64,000 nt of DNA, from positions 1 to 64,000 of the forward strand of contig JAFRXM010000001.1 in assembly GCA_017443515.1 (NCBI GenBank), written 5' to 3'. Below are positions 2,694 to 28,709 of the stretch, in pieces. A model generated the notes under the pieces. It searched no databases, had not been told where the DNA came from, and was given only the letters and a program-made list of their open reading frames with translations. The position numbers were made by a program, and so were the translations under genes. The number at the start of each line of letters is the position of its first letter. Position 1 is the stretch's first letter. The stretch is from Bacillota bacterium. GTDB lineage: Bacteria; Bacillota; Clostridia; Peptostreptococcales; Anaerovoracaceae.

Positions 2694-2740
2694 ATAGACC
2701 GTTATTAAGTCAAGATCGACTTATAGGAGGTTTTTAAAAA

Positions 2741-4888
2741 ATGAAGAAAACAACAAAGATCCTTAGTGTTGTTCTCGCGCTGATCATGGTGATCGGTCTT
2801 GCTGCCTGCGGCGGCAACACACCGGCCAACAACAATACAGCACCGGCTAACAACACTAACAATGCGGACAACACTACACCACCCGCTGTAGTAAGGCCCG
2901 ACAGCTATGCAAGGCTCGACGAGGAAAAGGTCTACTCCGAAGTACTCGGAAAGTATGCAGAGCTCAGCGCTGCTGCTAAGGCTGCAAAGAGCGACGACGA
3001 AAGATTCGTACTCTATGCACAGGCAGAAGCTTACCTGCTCGATTCTGCAGTCATGCTCCCCACCACCACTCAGGGCGGTGCATACGCTATGTCCAGAATC
3101 GCTTACAGGACTGTTCCCTATGTTAACTGGGGAAATGATGATGACAGATGGAAGGGCGTAATAATCTCCTCCGACCTCATCACCAAGGAAGAGCGTGCAG
3201 ACCTTGTTGAACAGTGGAAGAAAGCTGTTGCAGGCGAAGGCACCTATGATCCTGCTGCTTATCTGACCAGCAAGGGTCACACCATCAACCCGAACTACAA
3301 GACCACATTCTCCACAGCTCCTGTAACTCTGGATACTCTTAACACATCCAGCCAGTCTGATACAGAGATCCTGGTCAACTGCACCGACAACCTCGTACAG
3401 TACAACAACCTCGGACAGATGATCCCGGCAATGGCTGAGAAGTTCGAGGCAAGCGCTGACGGAAAGACCTACACATTCACCATCCGTCAGGGTGCGTACT
3501 GGTTCGACTCCGAAGGCAAGCAGGTAGCAGAAGTTACCGCTGAAGACTTCGAAGCTGGTTTCCACCACATGCTCGACGCAGCCGCTGGTCTTGAGTGGCT
3601 CGTTGAAGGCGTTGTTGTAGGCGCTCACGAGTACCTCAACGGCGGATCCTGGGATGACGTAGGCTACAAGGCTACCGACAAGTACACCCTCACTGTCACC
3701 CTCGAGGACAACTTCACTTACTTCCCGACAATGCTCACATACAGCTGCTTCGCACCTATCTGCAAGAGCTTCTATGAGAGCCGCGGCGGCGTATTCGGAA
3801 TCGAAGAGTACGGCAAGGCATACGAAGCTGGAACGATCAAGTACGGCCTCGCTACCGACGTATCCTCTCAGGTCTACAACGGAGCATTCCTGCTCACCAA
3901 GCTGAACCCGGATTCCGAGATCACTGTTGTTAAGAACAAGGGTTACTATGATCCCGAAAGCGTAAAGCTTGACTCCATCACCTGGATCAAGGACGCTGGC
4001 GAGAACCCGACACAGTTCTATGCTGACGTTGTAAAGGGAACCTATCCCGGATGCACACTTGCTGAATCCACCGGTCTGCTCAAGCTTGCAAGAGAAGACG
4101 GCAACTTCGACAAGTACTCCTACACCTCTGATACCACTTCCACCACCTACTTCATGGGTCTGAACGTCAACAGAGGAACATTCGTACTTTCCTCCGGCGC
4201 TGCCAAGTCCACAAAGGCTGACGACGACGCCAAGAAGATCGACATCCAGCTCGCTATGCTGAACAAGAACTTCAGGAAGGCTATCGTTTCTGCATTCTCC
4301 AAGCAGAAGTACAATGCTGTTACCTACGGCGAAGAGATGGCTCTCATCTCCGTAAGAAACATGTACACCATGCCTGGATTCGTACAGCTCTCCTCCGCAC
4401 AGAAGGATGCTGACGGCCACGAATTCGCAGCTGGTACTCCGTACGATGAACTCGTTCAGTACTATTGCGACAAGCTCGGCGCTGGAATAACCGTTAAGGA
4501 CAGCGTTGATGGCTGGTACAACCCCGAAGCAGCAAAGAAGTACATCGCTGCTGCTAAGGAAGAGCTCGGTTCTGCAGTCAACTGGCCGATCGAACTCGAC
4601 GTAGTTTACTACTCCGCTTCCAAGAGCCAGGTTGCTCAGGCTAACGCTGTAAAGCAGTTCATGGAAGAGAACCTCGGTAAGGAAAACGTAGTCATCAACC
4701 TCGTTGAGACTACCACCACCGATGACTTCTATGCTTGCGGCTACAGAGCATCCAACGGCGAAGCCGAGAACGCAGACCTGTTCTACGGTTCCGGCTGGGG
4801 CCCGGACTTCGGTGATCCTTGCACCTACCTCGATACCTTCCTCCCGAACGGCGAAGGTTACATGACCAAGACCATCGGTCTGTTCTAA
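2741..4888 (+). CDS. Peptide ABC transporter substrate-binding lipoprotein, apparently circularly permuted
   Basis: This is an SBP_bac_5-type binding protein of an Opp/Dpp-like importer, anchored outside the membrane. It has a lipoprotein signal with LAAC and lipid Cys23, then an Asn/Thr-rich linker (about 24-48). Residues 84-140 (DDERFVLYAQAEAYLLDSAV, then a Gly-rich strand and a WKGV end) resemble what is normally the C-terminal end of this family. The usual family start (TLDTLNTSSQSDTEILVNCT, then MAEKFEASADGKTYTFTIRQ) only appears at about residue 197. The protein stops at 715, soon after the GWGPDFGDPCTYLDTF motif, where other family members still have their C-terminal helix region. I infer a circular permutation rather than truncation. 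A strong RBS and promoter precede it; a hairpin follows before the permease. Confidence 0.85.
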   Translation: MKKTTKILSVVLALIMVIGLAACGGNTPANNNTAPANNTNNADNTTPPAVVRPDSYARLDEEKVYSEVLGKYAELSAAAKAAKSDDERFVLYAQAEAYLLDSAVMLPTTTQGGAYAMSRIAYRTVPYVNWGNDDDRWKGVIISSDLITKEERADLVEQWKKAVAGEGTYDPAAYLTSKGHTINPNYKTTFSTAPVTLDTLNTSSQSDTEILVNCTDNLVQYNNLGQMIPAMAEKFEASADGKTYTFTIRQGAYWFDSEGKQVAEVTAEDFEAGFHHMLDAAAGLEWLVEGVVVGAHEYLNGGSWDDVGYKATDKYTLTVTLEDNFTYFPTMLTYSCFAPICKSFYESRGGVFGIEEYGKAYEAGTIKYGLATDVSSQVYNGAFLLTKLNPDSEITVVKNKGYYDPESVKLDSITWIKDAGENPTQFYADVVKGTYPGCTLAESTGLLKLAREDGNFDKYSYTSDTTSTTYFMGLNVNRGTFVLSSGAAKSTKADDDAKKIDIQLAMLNKNFRKAIVSAFSKQKYNAVTYGEEMALISVRNMYTMPGFVQLSSAQKDADGHEFAAGTPYDELVQYYCDKLGAGITVKDSVDGWYNPEAAKKYIAAAKEELGSAVNWPIELDVVYYSASKSQVAQANAVKQFMEENLGKENVVINLVETTTTDDFYACGYRASNGEAENADLFYGSGWGPDFGDPCTYLDTFLPNGEGYMTKTIGLF

Positions 4889-4990: not shown

Positions 4991-6571
4991 ATGAAAAAAT
5001 ATCTTTTAAAGAGAATAGGATTTTCGATCTTCTCGCTTATAGTTGTTGTGATTGCCGTCATGCTGCTGGTGTATTCGCTCATCGACAGAAATGTAATATT
5101 CCAGATGGACGACGTCTGGAACAAAAGAAGCAACAACAGCAGGACGTACTACGAGTACACCATGTACCAGAAGTACGGCTATCTTACATTTGTAGACTAT
5201 ACTACATATCTGTCCGGAAAATATTCGGAAAAGTATGGACCCAAGTATACTGAGCAAGCGGAATTCGCCACCGCAAAAGTTGCCATCCAGTATGAAAAAT
5301 CATACCTGGAGAATCCCGATGTTCAGGAGTTCATATCAAAGTACGATGGTAAAGATGGTTATAAGATCGTTTACCTTACCCCGATGAAGTATTCCAACGG
5401 GAAGACAAAACCCGGCGGAGACGGATATCTTCTCGCCACCAGGGAGAAGAGCGTATTCAGCCGTCTCTGGGATTACGCAAAGGGGCTCATCACCGTTGAA
5501 ACTAAAAATGATGTCCAGGATGAAAGGCTTACAGAGCGCTACACCAGATGGGAGAAAGATCCCTACAGCGGCCTGTTTGCCCACGTAGGATCCGGCACTA
5601 CACACAAGTATCTTTTGTATTTCAACGGGCGGTTCCCGTTCATACACCAGAACCGCATCCACCTGCATCTTGGCGTATCCTTCACCAAATACAGAGGTCA
5701 GGAAATAACTGATGTAATCACTCAGCCGACCGGTGAAATGAAGTACGTCAGGACACAATACCCCGCATATATCGGTACAGACCGTTACGATGAGACGGCC
5801 ATCGATTTCCACGAAGTGACTTATAACTACGGAGAACCGACGGAAGCTCAGAAGGAACTGTTTACCGACAATTATACAAACATATCCTATCAGAGGAAGG
5901 GCCTCTCAATGATAGAGAACTCCTTCGTGATAGGAGTAATCGCTACGATCCTGGCATACATGATCGGTCTTCCGCTCGGAGTGCTCAATGCCAGAAAGAA
6001 GGACAAGCTGCCCGACAAGATCGGTATGTGGTACATAATATTCATAATGGCAGTTCCGTCGCTGGCATATATTTTCATGTTCGCAGCCATCGGAACAAGG
6101 CTCTTCGGCCTGCCTTACGCATTTGCCAACGCCAAGGTGCCCATCCTCGCGTACATACTTCCTATCATCTCGATGGCGCTGCCTTCGATAGGAGGCCTCA
6201 TGAAGTGGATGCGCCGCTACATGATCGACCAGATGAACTCGGACTACGTAAAGTTCGCCCGTGCTGAGGGCCTCTCCGAAAGCGAGATCTTCAGCAAGCA
6301 CATCTCCAGGAACGCTGTAATTCCTATCATCCACGGTATTCCCGGAAGCATACTGGGCTGCCTCGTCGGCGCGATCATCACAGAGCGTGTATACGCCGTT
6401 CCCGGTGTCGGCAATCTGCTGACAGCGGCTATCAACGGACACGACAATGCCATAATAGTGGCCTGCACCGTGTTCTACACCACGCTGTCCATCATATCCC
6501 TGATACTGGGTGATGTGCTGATGGCCAAGTGGGATCCGCGCATCTCGTTTGAAAGCAAAGCAGGAAGGTAA
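4991..6571 (+). CDS. Opp/DppB-type permease with enlarged extracytoplasmic domain
   Basis: This is the first membrane subunit of the importer. Residues 9-30 form one membrane helix. The stretch 32 to about 307 is hydrophilic, rich in Tyr and charged residues, and by topology lies outside the cell. Only then come the remaining helices (from about 310) and the coupling loop DYVKFARAEGLSESEIFSKH with the family EAA pattern, ending in MAKWDPRISF. Ordinary DppB proteins are about 310-340 residues with a much shorter loop; this one has 526. The extra domain could dock the unusual binding protein. The RBS is weak (AGAAAG about 10 bases upstream). The gene is followed closely by the second permease. 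Confidence 0.88.
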   Translation: MKKYLLKRIGFSIFSLIVVVIAVMLLVYSLIDRNVIFQMDDVWNKRSNNSRTYYEYTMYQKYGYLTFVDYTTYLSGKYSEKYGPKYTEQAEFATAKVAIQYEKSYLENPDVQEFISKYDGKDGYKIVYLTPMKYSNGKTKPGGDGYLLATREKSVFSRLWDYAKGLITVETKNDVQDERLTERYTRWEKDPYSGLFAHVGSGTTHKYLLYFNGRFPFIHQNRIHLHLGVSFTKYRGQEITDVITQPTGEMKYVRTQYPAYIGTDRYDETAIDFHEVTYNYGEPTEAQKELFTDNYTNISYQRKGLSMIENSFVIGVIATILAYMIGLPLGVLNARKKDKLPDKIGMWYIIFIMAVPSLAYIFMFAAIGTRLFGLPYAFANAKVPILAYILPIISMALPSIGGLMKWMRRYMIDQMNSDYVKFARAEGLSESEIFSKHISRNAVIPIIHGIPGSILGCLVGAIITERVYAVPGVGNLLTAAINGHDNAIIVACTVFYTTLSIISLILGDVLMAKWDPRISFESKAGR

Positions 6572-6577
6572 GGCGTC

Positions 6578-7549
6578 ATGAACATAAACGAAAACATACT
6601 CGTCAATGAAAATGATCTCTTTACCTTCATTGACCACGACTCCATAGAGTCCGAGAAGATAATCGCTCCCAGATACTCCTACTGGAGATCCGTGTTCCGC
6701 GTGTTCTTTAAAAAGAAGATCAACTGGGTGCTGATAGGGCTGTTCGTGTTCATCCTTGTCTTCTCATTCATATTCCCGCTCATCTGCCCGTACAATGCGG
6801 TGGAGAACGTTCTCCAGGCGACATCATTCAACCTCAGCCCGTCGGCAGCGCAGAAGTACTTCAACGACGGAACGATCCTTAAGTGGATGTTCGGAACAGG
6901 CCCGCAGGGCAACTCCATATTCTACGGCATCTGGGCATCCGCCAGGACATCCCTGCTGCTGGCTATAATATGCGCGGCCATCAACATGGTAGTGGGTATC
7001 ATCATCGGCGCGGTCTGGGGCTACTCCAAGGGCCTGGACCAGGTAATGATGGTCATCTACAACATCATAGCCAACGTACCGTACATACTGGTAATAACGG
7101 TATTGGTCTACGTTATAGGTTCCGGATTCGGAAGCTTCATATTCGCGCTGACCATAACGGGCTGGCTGGGCATAGCGTACTTCTTCAGGACTCAGGTCCT
7201 TATAATAAGGGACCGCGAATACTCGCTGGCTTCCAGGTGCCTTGGCACTCCCACCGGACGCATAGTAAGCAAGAACATACTTCCGTTCCTCACATCTGTA
7301 ATAGTTACGCTTCTTGCTACAGAGCTGCCTTCCTACATCTCCATGGAAGTGTACCTCTCCTACATAGGTGTAGGTCTTTCGGCCAACATCGCATCCCTTG
7401 GCCGCATGATCCAGGAAGCTCAGACGACCTTCCTCATCTACCCCTGGGAGTTCTGGCCGCCGGTAGCGATAGCGTCCATAATCACTATAATACTCTACGT
7501 ACTTGGTCAGAACCTGGCAGACGCCACTGACCCGCGTACACATATGTAA
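6578..7549 (+). CDS. Opp/DppC-type permease
   Basis: This is the second membrane subunit of the importer, pairing with the preceding permease to form the channel. A cytoplasmic N-tail of about 50 residues precedes the first helix (WVLIGLFVFILVFSFIFPLI). Family landmarks follow: FGTGPQGNSIFYGIWASART (usual GTDxxGRDxxSR), the coupling segment around YSLASRCLGTPTGRIVSKNI, and LSYIGVGLSANIASLGRMI near the end. It has 323 residues, a normal length. It starts 7 bases after the previous stop and is followed by TAAGGAGG for the ATPase, so it is one operon. The canonical aspartates of the GTDxxGRD motif are replaced, showing that the system is divergent. Confidence 0.88.
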   Translation: MNINENILVNENDLFTFIDHDSIESEKIIAPRYSYWRSVFRVFFKKKINWVLIGLFVFILVFSFIFPLICPYNAVENVLQATSFNLSPSAAQKYFNDGTILKWMFGTGPQGNSIFYGIWASARTSLLLAIICAAINMVVGIIIGAVWGYSKGLDQVMMVIYNIIANVPYILVITVLVYVIGSGFGSFIFALTITGWLGIAYFFRTQVLIIRDREYSLASRCLGTPTGRIVSKNILPFLTSVIVTLLATELPSYISMEVYLSYIGVGLSANIASLGRMIQEAQTTFLIYPWEFWPPVAIASIITIILYVLGQNLADATDPRTHM

Positions 7550-7561
7550 GGAGGCGGAACA

Positions 7562-9358
7562 ATGGCAGAAGAAAAGAAAGTCATTCTCTCGCTGAAAGAC
7601 GTAGAGGTAAAATTCAATGTAAGAGGAAGGATACTCACCGCAATACGCGGAGTGTCCCTCGACATATTCGACCACGAATCCCTTGCTATAGTAGGGGAGT
7701 CCGGTTCGGGTAAATCCGTCCTCACCAAGACCTTCGCAGGCATGCTGGATTCCAACGGATTCATCTCCAACGGAACCATAATCTTCTCCGACGATGACCT
7801 GTCCAAGACCGACGTCGTTCTGGACAGCAAGCTCGAGGCTGAACTTGCAAGTGCCAGAGACATGCTCAACAAGCACAGCAAACTTGAGCGCGGCGCCGGG
7901 TACTACAACAAGTACCTTGCGAAGAAGGACGAGATAGAGCATCTTCAGTCGCTCTCCAAAGAGGAAGAAGAAGCATATTCCAAGAAGATCAAAGACCTTA
8001 CGGACAAGTCCGTAAGCCTTAAGAACTTCATCCAGACCCTCGACAGGAAGAACGCCGAGGACAAGGCCAGGATGGAGGCATCCGAGGCTCAGGTCCGCGA
8101 ATACGAAGCGCAGCTGGAAGCCCTGTCCAAGGAAATGACAGAGAAGGCAAAGGCCCGCGCAGCCGAGTACCAGAGCCAGACTGAAAAGGTGGCTTCCGAC
8201 AAGGCTGAGCTCGAAAAACTGCTGGCTCTGAGCAAGGAAGCCGCAGAGACCGTCGATGTGGAAGGCAATCCCAACGGACTTTCCGACGCCGTCCTTGAAA
8301 GGAACGAGATCATAGCCCGCGAGATCATCCTCTCCATAGGCCGTTATTCCGCAAGGGATCAGAAGAAGTTCCTCGCCATACTCGACAAGGGCTTTGAGGA
8401 AGCATGCCGCATCGGCAGGGATCTCAACGACCCCGAAGTCAGGAACGACATCTTCGATGAAGCCACATTCAGAGTGCGCTACGACAGCTACGATGAAGCC
8501 ACAAAGACTCTCCACGGCTACGCCATCATAGACTGCGCAAAGGTAAAGAGAGCAGGCGACTGGCAGCAGATCCGCGGCCGCAAGATAGCCACGGTCTTCC
8601 AGGACCCGATGACGTCCCTCAACCCGGTAATAACCATAGGCAAGCAGATCATGACGGTCATCCTCAAGCACCAGAAGTGCAGCCAGGAAGAAGCCAGGAA
8701 GAGGACCATAGACATCATGGCCAAGGTAGGAATACCCGAGCCTGAACAGCGCTTCGACGACTACCCGTTCCAGTATTCCGGCGGTATGCGCCAGCGTATA
8801 GTAATAGCTATCGCGCTGTCCTGCCAGCCCAGGATACTCATCTGCGACGAGCCTACCACAGCTCTGGACGTTACCATCCAGGCCCAGATACTGGAGCTCA
8901 TAAAGCAGCTGCAAAGGGATCTCGGCTTTACGGTAGTCTACATCACCCACGACCTTGGCGTCGTTGCAAACGTAGCAGAGCGCGTAGCGGTGCTTTACGC
9001 AGGCCAGATAGTGGAGATCGGCACAGTAGAAGAGATCTTCTACGAGCCGCGCCACCCGTATACCTGGGCGCTTTTAAGCTCGCTACCGCAGCTGTCCGAG
9101 AAGGGAACGGATCTGTTCTCCATCCCGGGCACGCCGCCATCGCTGTACAATAAGATCGTCGGCGACGCATTCGCTCCGCGCAATCAGTACGCCATGGCAA
9201 TAGACCTCAAGGAGACTCCTCCGATGTTCAGGATCACTGATACGCACTTCGCCAGGACCTGGCTGTGCGATCCCAGGGCTCCCAAGGTCGATCCGCCGGC
9301 AAACATACTCGATCTTCACGAAAAGATGAAGAAATCTCACGTCGAGATACAGGATTAG
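7562..9358 (+). CDS. Opp/DppD-type ATPase with a large coiled-coil insertion
   Basis: This is the first ATP-binding subunit. Walker A GESGSGKS is at 45-52. The normal strand [12 protein letters not shown] (71-82) should lead within some 20-30 residues to the Q-loop, but [19 protein letters not shown] with Gln347 comes only after about 250 extra residues (83-335). The insertion is charged and helix-forming (runs of E, K, A, L with heptad spacing at about 85-225), followed by a more mixed part (230-330). Downstream features are normal: signature YSGGMRQR (405-412), Walker B ILICDEP (425-431), His463. In the C-tail the Cys cluster common in Dpp/Opp ATPases is mostly gone (FAPRNQYAM). It has 598 residues against about 330 usually. 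A strong RBS precedes it. Confidence 0.9.
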
Positions 9359-9371
9359 GAGGCAACAGCAT

Positions 9372-10322
9372 ATGTCAAATGAAGAGAAAAAAGTGCTGCT
9401 TTCCATAAGGAATCTTGACGTAGTCTTCAAGAACGGCAAGCAGAGCTTCAAGGCTGTCGAAAACGTCAGCTTCGACATCTACAAGGGCGAGACTCTTTCC
9501 CTGGTAGGCGAGTCCGGCTCCGGAAAGACCACCATAGGCCGCGCGATAATCAGGATCAACCCCTGCTCCGCAGGCGAGATCATTTACGACGGCAAGCGCA
9601 TCTCCGGCAAGATCTCCAAGGCCGAGGACCGCGAGGTGGTAAGGAAGATCCAGATGATCTTCCAGGACCCGGCAGCTTCGCTCAACGAGCGTGCTACGAT
9701 CGAATACATCATCTCCGAAGGCCTGTACAACTTCCACCTCTACAAGGACGAGAAGGACAGGATGGAGAAGGTCATGAACGTAATAGAGTCCGTAGGCCTC
9801 CTGCCGGAGCACCTCACAAGGTACCCGCACGAGTTCTCCGGCGGACAGCGCCAGCGCGTTGGTATCGCAAGGTCCATAGTAATGGATCCGGAATTCATCA
9901 TCGCGGACGAGCCGATCTCCGCTCTGGACGTATCCATAAGAGCCCAGGTCCTCAACCTGCTCAAGAAGTTCCAGAACGAAAGGGGCCTCACCTATCTGTT
10001 CATAGCTCACGACCTTTCCATAGTAAGGTTCATTTCGGACAGAATAGTGGTAATCTACAAGGGCAGGATAATGGAGATAGCAGAGACGGAAGAGCTCTTC
10101 GCACATCCGATGCATCCCTACACCAAGTCACTCATGTCGGCTATTCCTATCCCGGATCCCATCCTGGAGAAGAACAAGAAGCTCTTCGTTTACGAGCCCG
10201 ACAAGATCCACGATTACTCCAAGGAAGGCCCGGAACTGAGAGATCTCGGCAACGGCCACATGGTGTTCTGCAACACAGAGGAATTCGAAAGATACAAGGA
10301 AAAGCGTTTTGGGCAAGCTTAA
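9372..10322 (+). CDS. Opp/DppF-type ATPase
   Basis: This is the second ATP-binding subunit of the importer and would form the ATPase dimer with the preceding gene product. It shows Walker [10 protein letters not shown]-loop [11 protein letters not shown], signature FSGGQRQR, Walker B FIIADEP and the switch His in IAHDL. The oligopeptide-family C-terminal region is present ([19 protein letters not shown]) but, unlike most members, without a cysteine cluster. It has 316 residues, a normal length, and no insertion, so only the partner ATPase is enlarged. An RBS (TTAGGAGG) is placed before the ATG. Its last codons overlap the next gene by 14 bases. Confidence 0.9.
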
Positions 10323-11484
10323 ACTAAATTTCGGCGACGATCCAAAAGAGAAAAAGAAGAACATAGCAAGGGCGATAATTTTCGTCCTTGCTCTTGTAAT
10401 TGCCGTGTTCGCGATAACAAACGGCGTGCTGGCCATAGGCGACAAGGATCCTGGTTACTACACTCTGGAGGCCGCGCGCGACGTGAACATACCGAAATAC
10501 AGCCTGGGTGTGACTTACACCGAGTACTTCGAGGGGAGCACCAACGAGATCAAGCAGCTTCTTAGGACAGCCGAGAAAGTCTATTCTGACGCGCTTTTGT
10601 GGTCCTATAAGATGTTCGACGCAAAGGAAGAGTTCGAAGGCTTCGTGAACCTCGCAAGCGTCAACAATTCGGTAAAAAGCTGGACGCTGGGGGTGGAGGC
10701 CGATGGGCCTGCCGGGGACCTGGCTGCTTCTGTCTACAGGAGCCCGGAGTTCCAGTTCGCGCCGCAGGTGTACAATGCCATAATGGACGCCTACGAAAAG
10801 ACCTGCGAAAAGGCCGGCTACAACCTCTTTGCCGGGGCTTTGTACGATGTCTGGAAGGAGATCCTGGTGCTGGATGACGCAGAAAAGTACGATCCGCAAA
10901 ACGACAGCTACCAGAAGGAGCGCATCGAAAAACTCGCGCAGGCGTCTTCGGAGTTGGACAACTTTAAAGTGGTGGTCGTCAGCGCTTCGGAGTGCAGGCT
11001 GCGCTTTGAAGTGAAGGAAAGCTACGTCAAGCTCCTCGAATCGCTGGAGTGCCCCATCAACATCATAGATCTCAACCTGCTGCACGACACCTACATGATG
11101 CAGGAAGTGTACGCGCGCATGGAAGCCGCCGGTTTTAACGACTGCGTCATACAGACATCAAGCGGCATCCTGGCGCTTAACGGCAGGAATGTGGGTTCGC
11201 AGAGCAGCTTTTACAGAGCGGCTGTAGAAGGCGGAGATGTTTATCACTATGTTTTAAAGGACGCAGACGGCAGGGAGCATCTCAGGAGCCTGTATTTCAA
11301 CGTGTATACAGGGCAGCAGCACGATCTTGCGGAATTCACCAAGGTGGATATGGTGGGCCAGTTCGACCTGATGAAACCGGTATGGCTCAATCTTCAGCTC
11401 ATGAACGCCCAGACCGAAGCGGAACTGCAGGCGCTCATCACAAAGGTCAACGCCCTCGACGGCGTTCAGACAGAGATCAGGTAA
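10309..11484 (+). CDS. Membrane-anchored protein with divergent ApbE-like domain
   Basis: I do not recognise this as a named family with certainty. The start is TTG at 10309, inside the end of the preceding ATPase gene, which implies translational coupling. Residues about 20-42 form a membrane anchor, so the remainder is predicted to lie outside. The order of segments resembles ApbE (FAD:protein FMN transferase): a start like [20 protein letters not shown], then [20 protein letters not shown] followed by [13 protein letters not shown], then [20 protein letters not shown] and [13 protein letters not shown], where ApbE has its AxGGNI segment. The catalytic and flavin-binding signatures are degenerate, so it may be a non-enzymatic relative. 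It is the sixth gene of the importer operon, and no such gene follows the ordinary importer at 27 kb. Confidence 0.55.
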
Positions 11485-27104: not shown

Positions 27105-28709
27105 ATGAAAAAGATTTTAGCCGTACTCCTCGTCCTTGCAATGGTCATCGGCCTTGCTGCATGCGGCGGCGGAACAACTCCGGCAAACAACAACACTGCT
27201 CCTTCCAACAACACAACTCCGGCCAACAACACGGAGCCTGTTGCTGAGAAGAAGGTATTAAATGTAGCATTCCGCGGAGACCCGAACGGTCTTTGCCATG
27301 TATCCATCGCTGTAGGAAGCGCAAACACTCCTGCTCACGAGCTGATGATGGACCGTCTGTTCGAATATGATTACAAGACAGGTCAGCCGACTCCGATGCT
27401 CGCTACCAAGTGGGAGCCGATCGACGGAACACACTTCCGCGTCACACTCCGTGACGACGTATATTCCTGGAACGGCGACAAGTTCACCGCTGCGGACGTC
27501 AAGTACACCGTCAAGGCAGCTATCGACTCCGGAAAGCACGCCAGATACTACGGCAACTTCGACGTTGACAACTTCGTAGTTGAAGACGACACCCACCTCA
27601 TCTTCGTTCTTAAGAAGGTAGACCCGTTCATCCAGACGACCCTGTCCAACATTCCTTACGGCATGATCGTACAGAAGTCTGTTGAAGCTGGCGGCGGCCT
27701 TGAGAAGATGGACGGCCAGGGCGGCAACATGCCGAACTGCTACACCGGTCCGTACAAGCCCGTTGAATGGAGCACCGGTTCCTTCATCAAGTTCGTCAAG
27801 AACGAAAAGTACTGGGGCGGCGAGCCGTACTTCGATGAGATCGTGATCCACTCCATCGCAGACGCTCAGTCCCGTACACAGGCTCTCGAAGCTGGCAACG
27901 TAGACCTTGTTCTCGAGCCTTCCGAAGCTCAGGCAAGCCTCATCAAGGACAACAAGGATCTTGCTGTCTACAACTATCCTACCACCAACCACCACACCCT
28001 GTTCACCAACACCCAGAAGGCTCCGTTCGACGATGTGAACGTCCGTATCGCATGTGCGCTTGCGCTCAACTACGATGCTAACATCCAGAGAGCTCTCGGC
28101 GGATACGGAAAGCACTCCGACGACATACTGCCTATCGGTAACCCGCAGTACGAGAAGCCGGCAGAGTCCTTCTACAAGTTCGACCTCGCTCTTGCCAAGG
28201 AGTACATGGCTAAGTCCAAGTACGCCACCAACTGCCCGGAAGTTGAGATCTACTACACACCGCAGCACGCAGAGTATGTACCTCTCATCCAGCAGCAGTG
28301 GAAGGAGATCGGCATCACTGTTAAGCCGACCCCGATCGCACAGGCAGAGTTCTACAACACCATGGCTACTGGTGAAAAGCAGGCATGGATAGTCAACAAC
28401 TCCAACCCGAACCCCTATGAACAGCTGAAGTTCTACGATGGCGAGCACTTCAACTACAAGGACCTCAACGGCGGCCCGGGATGGAACGGCGGAGCTGAAG
28501 TTACCGCTCTGTTCGACAAGATCACTTCCGAGCCTGATATGGCTAAGGCCACTCCGTACTATCAGGAGCTGAGAAAGATCATCAACGCTCAGGTTCCGTC
28601 CATTCCTCTCTTCGTATATGAGAGACTGGCATTTGCTACCAGCAAGCTCGATGGTCTCATCCTCACCGAGGTCGGTGACATCAACTTCTCGAAGTGCAGA
28701 TTCAAGTAA
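27105..28709 (+). CDS. Peptide ABC transporter substrate-binding lipoprotein (DppA-like)
   Basis: An ordinary SBP_bac_5 binding protein of 534 residues. The signal peptide ends LAAC with lipid Cys20, followed by an Asn/Thr/Pro linker like that of the protein at 2741. The mature domain is in normal order: LNVAFRGDPNGLC at the start, MLATKWEPIDGTHFRVTLRD, then a middle domain, and the C-terminal YYQELRKIINAQVPSIPLFV segment. This normal order makes it a useful comparison for the permuted protein at 2741-4888. It is the first gene of a dppABCDF-like operon, followed by a hairpin before the permease. Confidence 0.92.
   Translation: MKKILAVLLVLAMVIGLAACGGGTTPANNNTAPSNNTTPANNTEPVAEKKVLNVAFRGDPNGLCHVSIAVGSANTPAHELMMDRLFEYDYKTGQPTPMLATKWEPIDGTHFRVTLRDDVYSWNGDKFTAADVKYTVKAAIDSGKHARYYGNFDVDNFVVEDDTHLIFVLKKVDPFIQTTLSNIPYGMIVQKSVEAGGGLEKMDGQGGNMPNCYTGPYKPVEWSTGSFIKFVKNEKYWGGEPYFDEIVIHSIADAQSRTQALEAGNVDLVLEPSEAQASLIKDNKDLAVYNYPTTNHHTLFTNTQKAPFDDVNVRIACALALNYDANIQRALGGYGKHSDDILPIGNPQYEKPAESFYKFDLALAKEYMAKSKYATNCPEVEIYYTPQHAEYVPLIQQQWKEIGITVKPTPIAQAEFYNTMATGEKQAWIVNNSNPNPYEQLKFYDGEHFNYKDLNGGPGWNGGAEVTALFDKITSEPDMAKATPYYQELRKIINAQVPSIPLFVYERLAFATSKLDGLILTEVGDINFSKCRFK

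What the first reader, a model, noticed from the sequence alone, without database searches (positions are those of the whole stretch)
2741..4888. Substrate-binding protein looks circularly permuted
The lipoprotein's residues 84-140 (LYAQAEAYLLDSAV and following) look like the usual C-terminal end of SBP_bac_5 proteins, while the usual N-terminal strand order starts only near residue 197. The chain ends soon after GDPCTYLDTF, where relatives continue. The normal-order paralogue at 27105 in the same window ends with YYQELRKIINAQVPSIPLFV, the region that seems to have moved here to the front. Natural circular permutation of a peptide-binding protein would change where the termini sit relative to the membrane anchor.
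Basis: partly seen in the sequence, partly recalled or inferred. Interest (0 to 1): 0.75.

Follow-up and report, generated by a model that had tools for sequence, protein, structure and literature searches.

The report
Circularly permuted peptide-binding lipoprotein
A nutrient-capturing surface protein of a rumen-type gut bacterium, and a whole family of its relatives, has the usual end of the protein moved to its front, so that by its alignment the greasy anchor that holds it to the membrane is attached to the opposite half of the clam-shell from normal.

Summary
Window 2741-4888 encodes a 715-aa AmiA/AliB-type oligopeptide-binding lipoprotein. Residues 56-161 are homologous to the last ~110 residues of pneumococcal AmiA, AliB, AliC and AliD; residues 183-715 match their first ~500, and the chain stops where that tail would begin. 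The break lies between AliD residues 525 and 528. An AlphaFold model of the mature chain (pLDDT 96, pTM 0.92) fits AmiA 33-533 with model residues 134-667 at 2.1 A. A curated OppA model (NF043077) gives the same swapped order. It is not a misassembly: 84 open frames in many independent Bacillota and Spirochaetota assemblies, including a second, 42%-identical gene in this genome, have this order. Permuted proteins form one clade; normal-order relatives occur in the same genus. Nearly every permuted gene heads an Opp/Ami operon. By AliD's domain map the lipid-anchored end moves from lobe 1 to lobe 2. The only published precedent found is the sugar-binding TpMglB-2 of Treponema, another fold class. 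A new variant of a known kind. What the permutation does for transport is untested.

The parts
2725..2730 (+). ribosome-binding site AGGAGG, 10 bases before the ATG
   Evidence: sequence
2741..2809 (+). lipoprotein signal peptide with lipobox LAAC; Cys23 is the lipidation site (residues 1-23)
   Evidence: sequence
2810..2905 (+). Asn/Thr/Pro-rich tether (residues 24-55)
   Evidence: sequence
2906..3223 (+). moved block (residues ~56-161), equivalent to AliD 528-636: end of domain III, third segment of domain I, first part of helix alpha-19
3224..3286 (+). connector (residues ~162-182) joining the old C-terminus to the old N-terminus, ordered in the model
3287..4885 (+). core (residues 183-715), equivalent to AliD 31-525
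4796..4807 (+). WGPD motif; W686 and D689 correspond to AliB W500 and D503, which hold the peptide's N-terminus
   Evidence: alignment; residue roles from PMC11192437
4991..6571 (+). permease 1 (OppB/AmiC type, 526 aa, long region before the transporter domain)
6578..7549 (+). permease 2 (OppC/AmiD type)
7562..9358 (+). ATPase OppD/AmiE type, 598 aa, with a ~240-residue insert at about residues 83-323
9372..10322 (+). ATPase OppF/AmiF type

Best explanation
The gene encodes a naturally circularly permuted oligopeptide-binding lipoprotein of the Ami/Ali (cluster C, SBP_bac_5) type. Shown by computation: the old C-terminal ~110 residues now lie first; a ~20-residue connector joins them to the old N-terminus; new termini were opened in domain III between the equivalents of AliD residues 525 and 528; the fold is otherwise kept; and the permuted order is shared by one clade. 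Inferred: it works as a Venus-flytrap receptor that catches oligopeptides at the cell surface (the residues that grip the peptide's N-terminus are kept as W686 and D689) and hands them to the two permeases and two ATPases encoded next to it. Inferred consequence: the lipid tether now holds lobe 2, the lobe that grips the peptide first, instead of lobe 1. Inferred origin: one ancient event, most likely duplication, fusion and trimming, in a line whose permease already had the long AmiC-type region.
For: Two-block swapped homology to four solved pneumococcal proteins and to an independent curated model. Clean de-permuted alignment with normal-order relatives. Model with pLDDT 96 and pTM 0.92 that fits AmiA 33-533 with residues 134-667 at rmsd 2.1 over 495 residues, Z 30.7, and AliD 29-526. 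84 permuted open frames, 14 in normal order, none with the block twice. The permuted set is one side of a branch with support 97 on the core tree, from which the moved block was left out, and 99 on the moved-block tree. Adjacent permease and ATPase genes in nearly every permuted locus that extends far enough. Ligand-residue roles and domain limits from PMC11192437.
Against: No experiment: neither peptide binding nor transport is shown. No topology-independent superposition was possible, so the packing of residues 56-161 is inferred from sequence homology and model confidence. Nearly all named sequences are from metagenome assemblies. The moved block is more diverged than the core (about 24% versus 29-32% identity to normal-order relatives), so capture of the block from a paralogue rather than a strictly internal permutation is not excluded.
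Confidence: 0.9

Rival explanations
1. Fusion rather than internal permutation: the front block came from the C-terminal end of a paralogous binding protein and the original C-terminal end was then lost. The end product and its working would be the same.
For: The moved block is more diverged than the core and is equally far from both normal-order groups (23.7% and 23.9%), while the core is nearer the Ami group (32.2% versus 29.4%). Lipoprotein leaders in this genome are very alike over residues 1-50, which would make leader exchange easy. A similar origin was discussed for TpMglB-2 (PMC4990184).
Against: Equal distance to both normal-order groups points to faster change after the event rather than to a particular donor. 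No donor and no intermediate with two blocks was found.
Confidence: 0.2
2. Residues 56-161 are a separate added N-terminal domain and the binding protein behind it is complete.
For: Pfam SBP_bac_5 covers 227-705 nearly end to end (2-365 of 368), which at first sight looks complete.
Against: The front block is homologous to the C-terminal end of AmiA, AliB, AliC and AliD and to the end of NF043077. The core stops at AliD 525 of 652, so it is not complete. PF00496 models the middle of these proteins only.
Confidence: 0.02
3. Assembly artefact: two pieces of a normal gene joined in the wrong order.
For: The window genome is a draft in 73 contigs.
Against: Same order in a second gene of the genome (42% identity, another contig) and in 84 open frames from many assemblies and sampling projects, with a shared connector and chain end.
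Confidence: 0.005

Closest known systems
AmiA / AliB / AliC / AliD, oligopeptide-binding lipoproteins of the pneumococcal Ami transporter (8a42, 8qlj, 8qlh, 8qlc; PMC11192437)
   Same: Fold, about 30-34% identity, three-domain layout with helix alpha-19, peptide-gripping W and D, lipoprotein, operon with a long AmiC-type permease
   Different: Order of the chain: here AliD 528-636 comes before 31-525; new termini in domain III; alpha-19 is followed by a connector instead of the chain end; tether on lobe 2
TpMglB-2 (Tp0684) of Treponema pallidum, 'Type Ic / Cluster Bc' (PMC4990184)
   Same: Naturally circularly permuted, membrane-tethered substrate-binding lipoprotein with relatives in spirochaetes and Gram-positive bacteria; binding and closing kept there
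   Different: Type I / cluster B sugar-binding fold with a different break and three strands moved; here cluster C, peptide-binding type, with the C-terminal ~110 residues moved to the front and clear sequence homology of the moved part
Mycoplasma-type OppA/OppB/OppC/OppD/OppF (NCBIfam NF043077-NF043081)
   Same: Closest curated models for permease 2 and both ATPases; the OppD model covers the long insert found here
   Different: Their OppA model has the normal order; all window proteins score below the curated cut-offs

Membership tests
SBP_bac_5 / cluster C substrate-binding proteins | Pfam PF00496 above its gathering score | tested here: met
   128.9 bits against a cut-off of 32.4
SBP_bac_5 / cluster C substrate-binding proteins | cluster C fold with the extra domain | tested here: met
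   model fits AmiA over 495 residues at 2.1 A, Z 30.7, and OppA/DppA structures at Z 20-26; the order-dependent aligner leaves the front block untested
Ami/Ali oligopeptide-binding proteins | sequence similarity along the whole chain | tested here: met
   both blocks match AmiA, AliB, AliC and AliD
Ami/Ali oligopeptide-binding proteins | canonical chain order, N-terminal strand first and alpha-19 last | tested here: not met
   order is reversed in this protein and in 84 open frames; it is therefore filed as a permuted branch, not as a canonical member
Ami/Ali oligopeptide-binding proteins | lipoprotein signal | tested here: met
   LAAC lipobox, Cys23
Ami/Ali oligopeptide-binding proteins | encoded with two permeases and two ATPases of the Opp type | tested here: met
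Ami/Ali oligopeptide-binding proteins | Trp and Asp that hold the peptide's N-terminus (AliB W500, D503) | tested here: met
   W686 and D689 align with them
Ami/Ali oligopeptide-binding proteins | binds and delivers oligopeptides | not testable with these tools
   needs binding or uptake experiments
TpMglB-2 type ('Cluster Bc') | circular permutation of a tethered substrate-binding protein | tested here: met
   order reversed, lipobox present
TpMglB-2 type ('Cluster Bc') | Type I / cluster B sugar-binding fold | tested here: not met
   the protein carries the cluster C family PF00496 and all its listed best fold matches are cluster C proteins

The most novel reading that the evidence does not exclude
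A family of permuted peptide receptors spread across rumen bacteria of two phyla in which the membrane anchor was moved by circular permutation from lobe 1 to the peptide-gripping lobe 2, changing how the receptor docks on its permease, together with another rebuilt part of the same transporter (the ~240-residue insert in OppD, present in 58 of 59 permuted operons and in 0 of 10 normal-order ones).
Probability: 0.25. Interest if true: 0.8.

Novelty: new variant of a known kind. Interest (0 to 1): 0.62.

Why it matters
Natural circular permutation of substrate-binding proteins was found described only once in the papers I could search (TpMglB-2). Its authors suggested that tethering might favour it and could see no clear advantage. 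A second, independent case in another fold class, again in tethered proteins of Gram-positive bacteria and spirochaetes, lets that idea be tested by comparison. It also supplies natural permuted scaffolds with new termini in the peptide-gripping lobe, which may be useful for peptide sensors. And it warns that Pfam-style annotation hides such rearrangements, because SBP_bac_5 covers only the middle of the chain.

Tried and rejected
Single-sequence AlphaFold gave a useless model (pLDDT 37) and was discarded. Search for intermediates with the block at both ends: none among 98 classified open frames. Test for a chimeric origin from the distances of core and block to two normal-order groups: the block shows no preference for one group. 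Papers: the searches and look-ups found TpMglB-2 and no report for peptide-binding or cluster C proteins; subscription papers are missing from that library. VIA-align 2 rows did not cover model residues 1-120, as expected for an order-dependent aligner; this is not read as lack of a known fold.

Full report
What was claimed.

Check of the observation. The open frame (715 aa, + strand) has a good ribosome-binding site, a lipobox (LAAC, Cys23) and an Asn/Thr/Pro-rich tether. Pfam sees SBP_bac_5 only at 227-705. Against the sequences of solved structures, two blocks appear in swapped order: residues 186-710 match AmiA 16-506 (2e-71) and residues 71-164 match AmiA 526-623; AliB, AliC and AliD behave alike. 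A profile of 63 relatives makes this firm: profile 11-121 matches AliC 512-626 (2e-11) and 134-663 matches AliC 12-506. For AliD the last core residue corresponds to residue 525 and the first residue of the moved block to 528 (an offset of 25 was fixed with W498 and D501 named in PMC11192437). An independent curated model (NF043077, Mycoplasma-type OppA, 896 positions) hits the window in the order 783-881, 39-135, 261-355, 651-737. The moved block is residues ~56-161, the connector ~162-182, the core 183-715.

Is it an artefact? No. A second gene in the same genome, on another contig and 42% identical, has the same order. A scan of GTDB genomes gave 69 loci, nearly all in Bacillota and Spirochaetota assemblies and most from rumen or other gut samples. 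In all, 84 open frames are in permuted order and 14 in normal order, none with two copies of the block; a few of the 84 are the same gene reached by two searches. Complete permuted proteins mostly end at the same place (...GYMTKxIGLF). De-permuted, they align cleanly with normal-order relatives.

Structure. With the family alignment, AlphaFold gives pLDDT 96 and pTM 0.92 for the mature chain, residues 49-715; the front block and connector are as confident as the rest. Foldseek and VIA-align 2 find AmiA and AliB-D first. Model 134-667 fits AmiA 33-533 at 2.1 A over 495 residues, and AliD 29-526. The chain thus ends well before the end of the normal chain. By the AliD domain map (domain III 297-582, domain I third segment 583-617, alpha-19 622-652; PMC11192437) the core alone lacks the end of domain III, a segment of domain I and alpha-19, which the front block supplies up to about residue 636. 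A topology-independent superposition could not be run here.

Evolution. On a tree of the core alone, the 65 permuted proteins are one side of a branch with support 97; the 13 normal-order ones are on the other. The moved block gives the same split, support 99. Normal-order Ami-type proteins exist in the same genus, so the permuted ones are a separate line rather than a local rearrangement. Spirochaetota sequences nest among Bacillota ones, which suggests transfer between phyla; one such contig is 401 kb, but binning errors in single assemblies cannot be excluded. The moved block has changed faster than the core (about 24% versus 29-32% identity to normal-order relatives) and shows no preference for either normal-order group.

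Context and working. The gene heads an operon: permease (526 aa, AmiC type, with a long region of ~300 aa before the transporter domain), a second permease, and OppD-type and OppF-type ATPases. The same order follows nearly every permuted gene whose contig extends far enough. The normal-order group nearest in the core (probable Streptococcus AmiA and same-genus genes) also has the long AmiC-type permease, while the other normal-order group has the short type. The residues that grip the peptide's N-terminus in AliB (W500, D503) are kept as W686 and D689. The best reading is therefore an oligopeptide importer that works like Ami. The step with a likely physical consequence is the anchor: in Ami proteins the lipidated N-terminus leads into domain I (lobe 1); here it leads into domain III (lobe 2), through a tether that tends to be longer (rough medians 43 and 20 residues, from a simple lipobox pattern). 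That the anchor point has moved follows from the alignment; that this changes docking or uptake is inference.

Comparison with known systems. By similarity, fold, operon and binding residues it belongs with the Ami/Ali proteins, but it fails the canonical chain order, so it is a permuted branch beside them and not a canonical member. It resembles TpMglB-2 in being a permuted tethered receptor (PMC4990184) but is not of that fold. I found no earlier report of a permuted cluster C or peptide-binding protein, within the limits of the library.

Verdict. Observation confirmed; interpretation supported; new variant of a known kind.

Noticed in passing
window 7562-9358 (insert about 7808-8530): The OppD-type ATPase has a ~240-residue insert, rich in charged, coiled-coil-like sequence, between the Walker A region and the Q-loop. 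It is present in 58 of 59 permuted-SBP operons and in 0 of 10 normal-order ones (exception L137); the Mycoplasma OppD model MMSYN1_0167 covers it end to end.
   Followed up: partly
L002 1405-4863 (G000:C38, from about 18871): A second permuted binding protein in the same genome has a signal peptide without a lipobox, is fused at its new C-terminus to leucine-rich repeats (open frame 1423 aa), and has no transporter genes in the stretch held.
   Followed up: partly
window 4991-6571: Permease 1 has about 300 residues before its transporter domain with no Pfam match in the part tested; long permeases of this kind accompany permuted and Ami-type normal-order receptors, short ones the other normal-order group.
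   Followed up: partly
window 10309-11484: ORF of 391 aa (TTG start) directly after and overlapping the OppF gene, with one N-terminal membrane-like segment and no Pfam or NCBIfam match.
   Followed up: no
window 2741-2890 and L003-L019: The first ~50 residues (signal, lipobox, Asn/Thr/Pro tether) are much alike in 17 further open frames of this genome (up to 72% identity), which hints at leader exchange or convergence.
   Followed up: no
L026, L028, L029, L030, L031, L077 versus window: Permuted genes of Sphaerochaetaceae/Spirochaetales assemblies are among the nearest relatives of the window gene (up to 74% identity in the core) although a locus that matches the same-genus gene is labelled Bacillota; transfer between phyla is likely.
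   Followed up: partly
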